Positions 48,855-53,102 of a DNA stretch of 64,000 nucleotides are shown piece after piece. The position numbers and the translations under genes are program-made. The stretch comes from Peptoniphilus lacrimalis DSM 7455. Its GTDB lineage: Bacteria; Bacillota; Clostridia; Tissierellales; Peptoniphilaceae. Within the stretch, counting starts at the first letter, position 1. Every line of letters starts with the position of its first letter. The DNA lies in NCBI RefSeq assembly GCF_000378725.1, contig NZ_KB900369.1:62001-126000 (forward strand). Reading direction: 5' to 3'. The notes beneath the pieces were generated by a model. It was not told the origin of the DNA, did not search any database, and saw nothing but the letters and a program-made list of their open reading frames with translations.

Positions 48855-51800
48855 TTGGATTTAAAAATAATTTTAGATAAATTAAATGTAAAGTATGATG
48901 AAAATTTATCAGCAAAAATAAAAAGTGTAAAATATAAAAAATCCAGCAAAGAAATTTTTATTGAAATTGACTCAAATGAAGATTTAGAAAGTTATCTGAA
49001 TAATCAAATTGAACAAGCGTTGAGAGAATATTTCGATTCATCTACCATTCATTTGTCATATAATAAAATTTCTAATCCTTACATAGATGAATATGACTTA
49101 ATAACTAAGGAAATTACAAATTACAATCCTTCTTCTTCTAGCTGGTTAAATGATATGAGTATAAAGATTGATAAAGAACATTTACAAGTGGATATTTTGT
49201 GTCCAAGTGAGGAAGTTTATCACTCATTGATTTCTAATGGGCTATCAAAAATTTTACAAGATAAACTAATTTTATTTGATGACTATAAAATCAATTTTGT
49301 TAAGAATATCAATAAAGAACCAGACAAAGAATTATTTATAAATAAATTTGAAGAAGAAGAAAAAAATATCTGTAAGTTAACTGAACTTAAACCAACTGAA
49401 CAAAGTAAAAAAATTGATAATATAAAAAGTGATGATAATAAATATATTTATAAATCCGGCAGATTTAAACTTGGTGATTATACAAAACTTATAGATATGT
49501 CGATTAATAATCCTAATATGACCTTTGAAGCAGATATATTTAAAATTGAATATAGGGAATTGAAAAATTGCATACTAGCTAGTTTTTCTGTTACAGATTA
49601 TTCATATTCTTTATTATGTAAGGCTTTCTTAAAAGATAAAGAAATAGAAAAATTTCAAAATGAATTTAACAATGGTGATCATGTCTTAATTGGTGGTCAA
49701 TTATCTTATGATACCTTTTCAAAATGTGATACCCTTATGATAAGATACATGGAAAAAACAGAAAAAGAAATGCCTAAAGATACTGCACAAGAAAAAAGAG
49801 TCGAACTCAGGGTTCACACTAAAATGAGCCAAATGAATGGAGTCACAAGTTTTTCGGATTTTGCAAAACGTGCTAAAAGTTTTGGTCACAAAGCAATAGC
49901 AATCACTGATGTAAGTGATGTACAAGGTTTCCCTGAAGCTATGGATGCAAGTAAAGACTTTGATATTAAAGTAATCTATGGTCTTGATGCAAATTTTGTT
50001 GATGATGAAGAAGATGTTGTTATAAATTATAATGAAAATAAATCCTACAATGCTTACGTGGTATTTGATATAGAAACAACAGGTCTATCTCCCATAAGAG
50101 ATAAAATTACTGAAATTGGTGCTGTAAAAATAGTTGATGGTATAATTACAGAAAGATTTTCACAATTGATCAATCCACAAATGCTAATTCCGGAAAAAGT
50201 CCAAGAACTTACCAGAATAACAAATGCTCTAGTTGAAAATGAACCAACTATAGAAGAAGTTGCCCCAAAATTTTATGATTTCATTAAAGATAGCGTTCTT
50301 GTTGCACATAACGCAAAATTTGATACTGCTTTTATAAGAAGAGTATTTAAAGAAAATGATTTAGATTTTATTAATCCAATCTTAGATACCTTAAGCTTTG
50401 CAAGAGCAACAGTTAAAGATACTAAAAAATTTAACTTAGCTACATTGTGTAAAAAATTTGGTGTATCTTTGGTGGGAGCCCATAGGGCTGTTAATGATGC
50501 TGAAGCAACAGCACACCTATTTATAAAGCTTATAAATAAAATTTTTGATCCTAAGCATATAGATTTTAATAAATTAAATTCTTTAAAGTCTCAGATTGAA
50601 CCAGAAATCTTATTTGAATCTTCTCTTTCAATACTTACAAAAAATGAAGAAGGGTTAAAAAATTTATATAAATTAGTTTCAGATAGTCATATGAATTACT
50701 TCAACAGGGTTGCAAAGGTCCCTAGAAGTCTGATTAATAAATATAGAAAAGGTCTTCTGATAGGTTCTGGTGATGAAAGCGGCGAGATATTTAATGCATT
50801 TTTTAGAAATTTAGAAATAGATGAAGTAGAAAAAATTGCTAGTTTCTATGATTATTTAGAAATTCAACCTATTGATAATTTTATTCCATCTTTATTACGT
50901 AATAAGCTTACAAGAGAAGATATTATTGAAATTAACAAAAAAATTTGCAAAGTTGGTGAAAATTTAGGTATTCCAGTTATAGCAACTTCCAATTGCTTTT
51001 ATTTAGATGAAAAAGATGATTTGGTTAGAAGAATCATTTTAAATGGAAAAGTTGGAGTTCCTGATTACAATGCAAAAATCAAGCAAAAGTTATATTTTAA
51101 ATCTACAGATCTTATGCTTGAAGAATTTTCATATTTGGGTGCAGATAAAGCGATGGAAGTGGTTGTTACAAATACAAACTTAATAAATGATTCCATTGAC
51201 AATGTAAAACCAATACCTGATGGTAAATATCCACCAGTAATTGAAGGCTCGGAAGAAACTCTAAAAAATATTACTTACAAAAAGGCGCATGAAATATATG
51301 GGGATCCTTTGCCTCAAATAGTTGAAGCTAGATTAAAAAAAGAACTTGACTCAATAATTTCAAACGGATATGCAGTTTTATATATAATCGCCCAAAAACT
51401 TGTTAAAAAATCTAATGATGATGGTTATTTAGTTGGCTCAAGAGGTTCAGTTGGTTCTTCTTTTGCTGCACATATGGCTGATATAACTGAAGTTAATCCA
51501 TTACCGGCTCACTATATATGTCCACAATGTAAATATAGTGAATTTATGGAAGATCCTACAATTGGTTCAGGGGTAGACTTAGCAGATAAAAATTGTCCTA
51601 AGTGTGGTCATAAATTAAATAAAAATGGTCATAATATTCCTTTTGAAGTTTTTCTTGGTTTTTATGGTGATAAAGAACCTGATATAGATCTGAATTTTGC
51701 TGGAGAATATCAACCAAATGCTCATAAATACACAGAGGAACTTTTTGGAAAGGGCTATGTTTTTAGAGCAGGAACAATTGGTAAAGTTGCATACAAGACT

Positions 51801-53102
51801 GCTTACGGATATGTCAAGAAATTTTTTGAAAATCAAGAAGATATATCTCAAACAGAAGTAGATAGATTAACCATAGAAGCTACAGGAGTTAAAAGAACAA
51901 GCGGACAACATCCAGGAGGAGTTATGATTTGTCCAAAATCAAAAGATATTTTTGACTTTACTCCTATACAATATCCGGCTGATGATAAATCCTCAGGGGT
52001 TATAACAACTCACTTTGACTATAACTTCATTCATGGAAAGATACTTAAGCTTGATATACTCGGTCATGATGGACCTACTATAATAAAAATGCTTGAAGAT
52101 TTTATAGGAATAGATACATCAAAAATACCGCTTGATGATAAAGATACCCTATCTTTATTTTCAAGTGGTGAAAAATTAAATCTCGATAAAAATATCTTTG
52201 ATGTTAGTACGGGAACATTAGGTATTCCAGAATTTGGTACTGGCTTTGTAAGACAAATGCTTATAGACACTAAGCCAAAAAACTTTGCAGAACTTGTAAG
52301 AATATCAGGTTTATCCCATGGAACTGATGTATGGTTAGGAAATGCAGCAGATCTTGTTTCTTCAGGTCAGGCAAGCTTATCAGAAGTTATTTGTACAAGG
52401 GAAGATATAATGCTTTATTTAATAGCTGCAGGTGCAGAGAATAAAATGGCTTTTGATACAATGGAAAAAGTTAGAAAGGGTAAAGGACTAACTGACGAAC
52501 AAATAAAAATAATGAATAATCTAAAATTACCTCCTTGGTATATAGATTCTTGTTTGAAAATTAAATATATGTTCCCAAAGGCTCACGCTGTAGCGTATGT
52601 TATGTTATCTTTTAGAATAGCATATTGTAAATTGAATTATCCATTAGCGTTTTATGCCACCTACTTCACTATAAAACTTTCAGACTTTGTAGGAGAGGTA
52701 ATTATTAATGGACCAGAAGCTATAAAGGCTCAAATTGACTTTATTAATAATAAAGAAACCCCAAGTTCAAAGGAGCAAACTCAAATGCCTATATATGAAG
52801 TTGCATTAGAAATGTATTCAAGAGGACTTGAATTTTTACCAGTAGATATTTATAAGTCAAAAGCTCAGGAATTTACAATTGAAGATAAAAAAATCCGTAT
52901 GCCGCTAAGAGCCCTAACTGGAGTAGGGGAACAAGCTGCTAAAAATATTATAGAAGCAAGAAATGATGGGCAATTTTTGTCTAAAGAAGACTTATTAAAA
53001 AGAGCTAAAGTTGGTAAATCGTTACTCAATATTTTTGAAATAAATAATGTAATAAAAGATATGGATGATACCAACCAAATATCAATGTTTAATATGTTTT
53101 AA
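48855..53102 (+). CDS. polC: DNA polymerase III alpha subunit, Gram-positive type (PolC)
   Basis: The 1415-residue replicative polymerase. Order: N-terminal domain (1-200), OB fold (about 210-310), PHP domain split by a DEDDh proofreading exonuclease (FDIETTGL near 404), then the polymerase. The zinc motif CPQC...CPKCG, PDIDLNFAGEYQ (catalytic Asp pair) and TGTLGIPEFGTGFVRQML are intact. The PHP half is not: HLHT is RVHT (319-322), TDH is TDV (352-353), GLEA is GLDA and the GNVHY block is SNCFY (712-716). Start is TTG 48855 after GAGGTGA. proS, commonly upstream, is absent. Confidence 0.96.
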   Translation: MDLKIILDKLNVKYDENLSAKIKSVKYKKSSKEIFIEIDSNEDLESYLNNQIEQALREYFDSSTIHLSYNKISNPYIDEYDLITKEITNYNPSSSSWLNDMSIKIDKEHLQVDILCPSEEVYHSLISNGLSKILQDKLILFDDYKINFVKNINKEPDKELFINKFEEEEKNICKLTELKPTEQSKKIDNIKSDDNKYIYKSGRFKLGDYTKLIDMSINNPNMTFEADIFKIEYRELKNCILASFSVTDYSYSLLCKAFLKDKEIEKFQNEFNNGDHVLIGGQLSYDTFSKCDTLMIRYMEKTEKEMPKDTAQEKRVELRVHTKMSQMNGVTSFSDFAKRAKSFGHKAIAITDVSDVQGFPEAMDASKDFDIKVIYGLDANFVDDEEDVVINYNENKSYNAYVVFDIETTGLSPIRDKITEIGAVKIVDGIITERFSQLINPQMLIPEKVQELTRITNALVENEPTIEEVAPKFYDFIKDSVLVAHNAKFDTAFIRRVFKENDLDFINPILDTLSFARATVKDTKKFNLATLCKKFGVSLVGAHRAVNDAEATAHLFIKLINKIFDPKHIDFNKLNSLKSQIEPEILFESSLSILTKNEEGLKNLYKLVSDSHMNYFNRVAKVPRSLINKYRKGLLIGSGDESGEIFNAFFRNLEIDEVEKIASFYDYLEIQPIDNFIPSLLRNKLTREDIIEINKKICKVGENLGIPVIATSNCFYLDEKDDLVRRIILNGKVGVPDYNAKIKQKLYFKSTDLMLEEFSYLGADKAMEVVVTNTNLINDSIDNVKPIPDGKYPPVIEGSEETLKNITYKKAHEIYGDPLPQIVEARLKKELDSIISNGYAVLYIIAQKLVKKSNDDGYLVGSRGSVGSSFAAHMADITEVNPLPAHYICPQCKYSEFMEDPTIGSGVDLADKNCPKCGHKLNKNGHNIPFEVFLGFYGDKEPDIDLNFAGEYQPNAHKYTEELFGKGYVFRAGTIGKVAYKTAYGYVKKFFENQEDISQTEVDRLTIEATGVKRTSGQHPGGVMICPKSKDIFDFTPIQYPADDKSSGVITTHFDYNFIHGKILKLDILGHDGPTIIKMLEDFIGIDTSKIPLDDKDTLSLFSSGEKLNLDKNIFDVSTGTLGIPEFGTGFVRQMLIDTKPKNFAELVRISGLSHGTDVWLGNAADLVSSGQASLSEVICTREDIMLYLIAAGAENKMAFDTMEKVRKGKGLTDEQIKIMNNLKLPPWYIDSCLKIKYMFPKAHAVAYVMLSFRIAYCKLNYPLAFYATYFTIKLSDFVGEVIINGPEAIKAQIDFINNKETPSSKEQTQMPIYEVALEMYSRGLEFLPVDIYKSKAQEFTIEDKKIRMPLRALTGVGEQAAKNIIEARNDGQFLSKEDLLKRAKVGKSLLNIFEINNVIKDMDDTNQISMFNMF

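What the first reader, a model, noticed from the sequence alone, without database searches (positions are those of the whole stretch)
49800..51002. PolC with a degenerate PHP phosphoesterase site
In PolC proteins such as that of B. subtilis the PHP domain keeps metal ligands in HLH, TDH, GLEA, the HHVTLL region and GNVHY. Here these read R-V-H (319-321), T-D-V (351-353), G-L-D-A, E-S-S-L-S-I-L and S-N-C-F-Y (712-716). At least four His ligands are gone, while exonuclease and polymerase motifs are intact. The PHP fold is probably kept only as structure, as in E. coli DnaE, although this enzyme still has a built-in exonuclease. That would make proofreading rest wholly on the DEDDh domain.
Basis: partly seen in the sequence, partly recalled or inferred. 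Interest (0 to 1): 0.6.

Follow-up and report, generated by a model that had tools for sequence, protein, structure and literature searches.

The report
Replicative polymerase with dead PHP site
The main DNA-copying enzyme of this Peptoniphilaceae bacterium has lost the metal-holding residues of its built-in PHP site; nearly its whole family lost them too, several times over, while the cell's second DNA polymerase kept that site in almost every genome checked, which suggests that the site matters in only one of the two enzymes.

Summary
Confirmed, and larger than reported. The PolC at 48855-53102 reads R-H-N-V-D-S-D-N-F at the nine published PHP ligand positions (consensus H-H-D-H-E-H-C-D/N-H); only His321 and a tolerated Asn713 fit. 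DEDDh exonuclease and polymerase aspartates are intact. It is a family trait: of 120 fully readable PolCs from the family (Peptoniphilaceae), 113 lack the site and 7 keep all nine ligands. All 80 PolCs read outside the family (40 from the order's 18 other families, 40 from the class), picked among better-scoring hits, are perfect. A single loss is rejected (AU test); at least four are needed. Histidine 4 is gone in all 113. DnaE1, the cell's other polymerase, keeps a perfect site in 45 of 49 readable loci. A confident model keeps the PHP fold. Best reading: the PolC PHP is a metal-free scaffold carrying the exonuclease, as in E. coli DnaE, with Arg319 plausibly replacing a metal. Degenerate PHP domains are known, also in some PolCs; this repeated, one-sided loss was not seen in five literature searches (two with capped lists). 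Activity was not tested.

The parts
48855..53102 (+). [quoted passage not shown]
   Evidence: TIGR01405 1526 bits, over cut-off; Pfam domains
49794..50039 (+). PHP domain, first half (residues 314-395)
   Evidence: PF02811 residues 317-398; alignment
49809..49811 (+). PHP position 1: Arg319 instead of His
49815..49817 (+). PHP position 2: His321, kept
49836..49838 (+). PHP position 3: Asn328 instead of Asp
49911..49913 (+). PHP position 4: Val353 instead of His
49986..49988 (+). PHP position 5: Asp378 instead of Glu
50052..50549 (+). DEDDh 3'-5' exonuclease domain inserted in the PHP domain (residues 400-565); D405, E407, D490, H543, D548 intact
   Evidence: PF00929 residues 402-556; DEDHD columns; positions
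50610..51149 (+). PHP domain, second half (residues 586-765)
50622..50624 (+). PHP position 6: Ser590 instead of His
50772..50774 (+). PHP position 7: Asp640 instead of Cys
50991..50993 (+). PHP position 8: Asn713 (Asp in the 80 PolCs read outside the family, Asn in G. kaustophilus PolC)
50997..50999 (+). PHP position 9: Phe715 instead of His
51681..52055 (+). span holding the polymerase catalytic aspartates D943, D945 and D1067, intact

Best explanation
This is an ordinary, working PolC whose PHP domain has lost its metal centre and any PHP nuclease or phosphoesterase activity. The fold survives as a scaffold that holds the inserted DEDDh exonuclease and braces the polymerase. Arg319 probably takes the place and charge of one lost metal and pairs with Asp378, as R10 may do beside D69 in E. 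coli DnaE. Proofreading by this enzyme would then come from the DEDDh domain alone, while DnaE1 in the same cell keeps the only full-length PHP match of the genome. The loss is typical of the Peptoniphilaceae and happened at least four times within that family. Shown: residues, distribution, repeated loss, retention in DnaE1, predicted fold. Inferred: no metal, no activity, the Arg-Asp substitution, the scaffold role.
For: Seven of nine ligands replaced. Family: 7 intact and 113 degenerate of 120 readable at all nine positions; 6 further rows have gaps, 5 of them degenerate where readable and 1 unreadable. Outside: 80 of 80 intact. DEDDh intact in 123 of 126 family rows (3 have gaps there) and 80 of 80 outside; polymerase aspartates in 125 of 126 family rows (1 has a gap). 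In 32 degenerate genera, columns that are at least 95% one residue outside the family are kept at 96% (exonuclease, 29 columns), 92% (polymerase core, 200), 66% (PHP apart from ligands, 60) and 31% (ligands, 9): decay centred on the site, much of the frame kept. Fold model pLDDT 92.7; Z 38.6 (1.9 A over 366 residues) to G. kaustophilus PolC and Z 31.5 (2.5 A, 263) to E. coli DnaE. DnaE1 PHP: 45 of 49 readable loci perfect. Mutation of Asp23 or Asp226 alone inactivates the M. tuberculosis DnaE1 PHP exonuclease (PMC5636811, passages). PolC holds the only PF00929 match in the window's genome.
Against: No biochemistry. AlphaFold tends to return the family fold whatever the ligands, and the alignment given held intact PolCs. 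The Arg-Asp pairing (8 of 8 genera with R/K at 1 have D at 5; 4 further genera have D at 5 without it) rests on few independent origins, and no coordinates were at hand to measure it. Much of the PHP outside the ligands stays conserved, so some non-nuclease binding role is possible.
Confidence: 0.85

Rival explanations
1. On top of the above, why it was lost, reading one: a PHP function was handed over to DnaE1. A change at the base of the family made the PolC copy dispensable, after which it decayed repeatedly while the DnaE1 copy stayed under strict selection.
For: DnaE1 sites perfect in 45 of 49 readable loci, 40 of these 45 in genomes whose PolC is not known to be intact (39 degenerate where readable, G065 unreadable); repeated loss confined to one family among those read. 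Even the intact family members have a faster-diverging PHP (1.58 of the core's divergence against 1.46 in the order), as if constraint was already relaxed. Small genomes do not explain it by themselves: G295 and G445, 1.2 Mb each, outside the order, are intact. Mismatch repair is not broadly lost: mutS1 over its cut-off in 225 of 248 order genomes.
Against: No permissive change was found. Genus g35 lost both sites (3 of 3 read), so DnaE1 retention is not obligatory. DnaE1 outside the family was not read here; PMC12926913 says most Clostridia keep both.
Confidence: 0.3
2. Why it was lost, reading two: plain relaxed selection. The PolC PHP metal site does little, and in this fast-evolving family drift removed it several times without consequence.
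For: Family proteins evolve faster throughout (mean -ln identity to 20 class rows 0.50 against 0.36 in the polymerase core); G. kaustophilus PolC binds metals yet no exonuclease activity was detected (PMC3666897); PMC12926913 calls PolC PHPs of PolC+DnaE3 systems often inactive.
Against: 80 of 80 PolCs read outside the family keep all nine ligands, so selection there looks strong; the 7 intact family members evolve as fast in the core (0.495) but kept the site.
Confidence: 0.35
3. A reduced metal site with another ligand set persists and serves a different reaction, such as pyrophosphate hydrolysis.
For: Some genera keep an acidic and His cluster: all 28 readable rows of genus g3 read H-D-T-E-S at positions 2-6 and R at 9, with E at position 1 in 25 of 28; E. 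coli DnaE PHP was reported to couple pyrophosphatase activity to replication (PMC4822814, listing and start of abstract seen).
Against: In the window only H321, D378, D640 and N713 could bind, and D640 and N713 vary within its genus.
Confidence: 0.07
4. Sequencing or assembly artefact, or a pseudogene.
For: None for the window; a few other genomes (G011, G038, G051, G065, G101, G116) have PolC broken over more than one frame, probably assembly errors.
Against: Intact 1415-codon frame, site lost in all 13 congeners.
Confidence: 0.01

Closest known systems
E. coli DNA polymerase III alpha (DnaE1) with its variant PHP domain (PMC3666897)
   Same: Positions 1, 4, 5, 7 and 9 changed, His at 2 kept, Arg at 1 with Asp at 5; predicted fold superposes
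   Different: E. coli uses a separate epsilon exonuclease and keeps D19, H83 and D201; here the exonuclease is built in and seven of nine positions depart
Geobacillus kaustophilus PolC (3F2B-D) and Enterococcus faecium PolC (9QPC)
   Same: Domain order OB-PHP-Exo insertion-Pol; close superposition
   Different: They keep eight of nine ligands with Asn at 8 (E. faecium read by eye from the alignment); G. kaustophilus binds Zn and Mn
PolC with 'inactive' PHP in PolC+DnaE3 bacteria (PMC12926913)
   Same: PolC whose PHP departs from HHDHEH[C/H]DH and whose DEDDh domain is the typical proofreader
   Different: There any single deviation counts, and the partner DnaE3 PHP is often inactive too; here the loss is deep and the partner DnaE1 mostly stays intact, in Clostridia, where that paper finds three active proofreaders in most cases
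DnaE1 of the same genome (G000:C7, L001)
   Same: C-family polymerase with a PHP domain
   Different: All nine PHP ligands intact

Membership tests
[quoted passage not shown]
   TIGR01405 over cut-off; Pfam domains
[quoted passage not shown]
Metal-binding (active) polymerase PHP domain | Nine ligands HHDHEH[C/H][D/N]H | tested here: not met
   R-H-N-V-D-S-D-N-F
Metal-binding (active) polymerase PHP domain | Bound Zn/Mn and PHP-dependent exonuclease | not testable with these tools
   needs purified protein
Variant (degenerate) PHP domain as in E. coli DnaE | Incomplete ligand set | tested here: met
Variant (degenerate) PHP domain as in E. coli DnaE | PHP fold conserved | tested here: met
   prediction only: pLDDT 92.7, Z 31.5 (2.5 A, 263 residues) to 2hnh
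Variant (degenerate) PHP domain as in E. coli DnaE | Stabilising role in the polymerase | not testable with these tools
   needs unfolding and activity assays

The most novel reading that the evidence does not exclude
The Peptoniphilaceae are a natural experiment that separates the two PHP sites of PolC+DnaE1 bacteria: a permissive change at the base of the family let PolC discard its PHP metal site again and again, histidine 4 always among the lost, while DnaE1 almost never could, so the PHP function that selection protects in Clostridia resides in DnaE1 and the PolC copy became redundant. In genus g35, which lost both, the PolC DEDDh domain may be the only replicative proofreader.
Probability: 0.3. 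Interest if true: 0.6.

Novelty: new member of a known kind. Interest (0 to 1): 0.42.

Why it matters
Why PolC carries a second apparent nuclease site beside its built-in proofreader is unresolved: the G. kaustophilus PolC PHP binds metals, yet no exonuclease activity was detected. A family in which the site was lost at least four times, has intact sister genera, and sits beside a mostly intact DnaE1 site gives matched pairs for asking what the site does, and a way to tell PolC from DnaE1 roles in Clostridia. [quoted passage not shown]

Tried and rejected
Sequencing error or pseudogene: rejected by 13 congeners. A single ancestral loss: rejected, log-likelihood 276 lower, p-AU 8e-130 (the group was defined by the trait, the trait's columns were left out of the tree). 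Loss of mismatch repair as the cause: mutS1 has a match in 247 of 248 genomes of the order and is over its curated cut-off in 225 of 248 (matches below the cut-off may be the paralogue MutS2 or fragments). A second DnaQ-type exonuclease as compensation: PolC holds the only PF00929 match of the window's genome, and one match is also the commonest count across the order (read by eye, not tallied), so it does not separate lost from intact. Genome reduction alone: G295 and G445, 1.2 Mb each, keep the site. A phylum-wide survey of ligand letters could not be done; one search gives presence of PolC only. No AlphaFold coordinates are available, so the pocket geometry and the Arg319-Asp378 contact were not measured. 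Searches of protein families in PHROGs, NCBIfam (hmmscan) and PADLOC, RNA tools and repeat finders were not used: nothing in the question called for them.

Full report
What is there. The window holds one PolC gene, 48855-53102 on the + strand, 1415 codons from a TTG start with a GAGGTGAG ribosome site just before it. Its neighbours look like ispG before it and rimP and nusA after it (my reading of the translations, not searched). Pfam finds a split PHP domain, an inserted RNase_T (DEDDh) exonuclease, polymerase and helix-hairpin-helix domains; the PolC model TIGR01405 scores 1526 bits, over its cut-off.

The observation. Aligned to G. kaustophilus and E. faecium PolC and to relatives, the nine positions listed in Table 1 of Barros et al. 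2013 (PMC3666897; passages and sections 5 and 6 read) are R319, H321, N328, V353, D378, S590, D640, N713, F715. Consensus is H, H, D/H, H, E, H, C/H, D/N, H. Seven of nine depart. The exonuclease set D405, E407, D490, H543, D548 and the polymerase aspartates D943, D945, D1067 are intact.

How far it reaches. Of 130 genomes of the family, 126 have a PolC match; the four without are all under 75% complete. Of 126 aligned PolCs, 120 are readable at all nine positions: 7 keep all nine (G073; G076 and G077; G084; G110; G128 and G129, in five genera) and 113 do not. The other 6 rows have gaps: 5 are degenerate where they can be read, 1 (G065) cannot be read. The 113 keep between one and seven ligands, two to four in 95 of them. 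Histidine 4 is gone in 113 of 113, cysteine 7 in 112, histidine 6 in 109, while histidine 2 is kept in 101. Outside the family, 40 PolCs from the order, covering all 18 other families seen there, and 40 from the class all read HHDHEHCDH. Those 80 were my choice among hits whose positions were printed, that is the better-scoring ones (40 of 116 non-family hits in the order; 40 of 331 hits outside the order in the class), so rare degenerate ones may have been missed. Of 80 named loci, again the best-scoring and in part the same genomes, 74 are intact and 6 degenerate; all 6 have contig lengths and ligand letters of family genomes already counted.

Which family. The species of the window was not identified.

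One loss or many. A tree of the polymerase core alone (80 rows, 618 columns, PHP left out) puts the family together (99/95) and mixes intact and degenerate lineages: G087 against intact g39 (100/98), genera g14, g20 and g2 against intact g19 (100/99), the window's group of 12 rows (100/96), and one large group against intact g13 (94/87). Holding all 52 degenerate rows in one clade costs 276 log-likelihood units (p-AU 8e-130). With no regain allowed, 6 losses are needed on the best tree and 4 after collapsing forks under 95. A DnaE1 tree (48 rows) independently repeats the first two pairs (97/97, 97/90) and adds G088 against intact G110 (100/99). That tree has no outgroup, and two of its rows (G038, G065) were treated as degenerate although their PolC is partly or wholly unreadable.

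The partner polymerase. DnaE1 of the window's genome carries a perfect PHP site. Of 50 DnaE1 loci from 30 genera (the 30 best Pfam scores plus 20 I picked lower down), 49 are readable: 45 perfect, one with Asp to Glu at position 3 (G038), three degenerate, all of genus g35 (the first two columns were mis-set and put right). Five of the 45 are from genomes with intact PolC, 40 from the rest. The best PF02811 match has E 2e-55 or better in 122 of 130 family genomes; the others are six g35 genomes (135-144 bits), G073 (cut by a contig end) and G081. G081 shows no DnaE1 at all, perhaps an assembly gap. In the window's genome the only full-length PHP match is DnaE1's and the only PF00929 match is PolC's exonuclease.

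Decay with a kept frame. In 32 degenerate genera the columns that are at least 95% one residue outside the family are kept at 96% in the exonuclease, 92% in the polymerase core, 66% in the PHP apart from ligands, and 31% at the ligands. PHP divergence relative to the core is 1.87 in degenerate and 1.58 in intact family members and 1.46 in the order; the intact set is only seven rows and its spread (0.21) overlaps the others. So the PHP as a whole seems under weaker constraint in this family, even where ligands remain. An AlphaFold2 model of residues 205-800 has mean pLDDT 92.7 and pTM 0.89; the same part of an intact relative (G128) gives 92.1 and 0.85, and both match 9QPC with TM 0.88 by query length. 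The window model superposes on G. kaustophilus PolC (Z 38.6, 1.9 A over 366 residues), T. aquaticus DnaE (Z 32.6, 2.2 A, 269) and E. coli DnaE (Z 31.5, 2.5 A, 263). Such models are built from the family alignment and do not prove that metal is absent.

How it probably works. Barros et al. [quoted passage not shown] coli DnaE in two metal places. Here, by the commonest letters of each genus, Arg or Lys sits at position 1 or 9 in 16 of 32 degenerate genera and never at both; the 8 genera with it at position 1 all have Asp at position 5, the same pair as E. coli R10/D69, though 4 other genera have Asp at 5 without it. These counts are of genera, not independent events. So the likeliest picture is a metal-free cleft closed by an Arg-Asp contact, a PHP kept as scaffold, and proofreading by the DEDDh domain. 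In M. tuberculosis DnaE1 mutation of Asp23 or Asp226 alone inactivates the PHP exonuclease (PMC5636811, passages), which makes activity here very unlikely.

Against the literature. Timinskas et al. (PMC3919608, passages and section 19) called all nine positions strongly conserved in PolC. Barros et al. found variant PHP domains in both Pol III and PolC among 47 sequences. [quoted passage not shown] it does not contain the strings Peptoniphil or Tissierell in its main text. Its supplementary tables were not open to me and may list these genomes. Five searches listed no paper on PolC PHP loss in this family; one search showed 15 of 33 papers and 10 of 168. So the kind is known; this repeated, one-sided instance appears not to be described in what I could search.

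Verdict. A real and cleanly bounded feature, well supported as loss of a metal site; the cause, and whether any activity was lost with it, remain open.

Noticed in passing
L321, L322, L323 (genus g35: G118, G113, G117): Both PHP sites are degenerate here: PolC HNDIENNNK (one of the five readable rows of the genus has D for N at position 6) and DnaE1 NHNYENSDH, with a long DnaE1 branch. The PolC DEDDh domain may be the only replicative proofreader.
   Followed up: partly
L072, L083, L092 and other genus g3 PolCs: All 28 readable rows of genus g3 share H-D-T-E-S at positions 2-6 and R at 9 (E at position 1 in 25 of 28), and g15 and g18 agree; this could be a new pocket rather than drift.
   Followed up: no
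G011:C1:475228-479462 (L131): polC split over two frames, and the dnaE frame also broken, in an 87% complete genome; similar breaks in G038, G051, G065, G101, G116. Probably assembly errors.
   Followed up: no
G081 (genus g17): No DnaE1 found in a 98% complete assembly with a full-length PolC; assembly gap or real loss not decided.
   Followed up: partly
phylum sample: Many PolC hits of about 1200-1260 codons match the model only from position about 376; these may be PolC without the exonuclease insertion, a form described in PMC3919608. Not checked.
   Followed up: no
window 48855: polC starts with TTG in this genome, with a good ribosome site.
   Followed up: no
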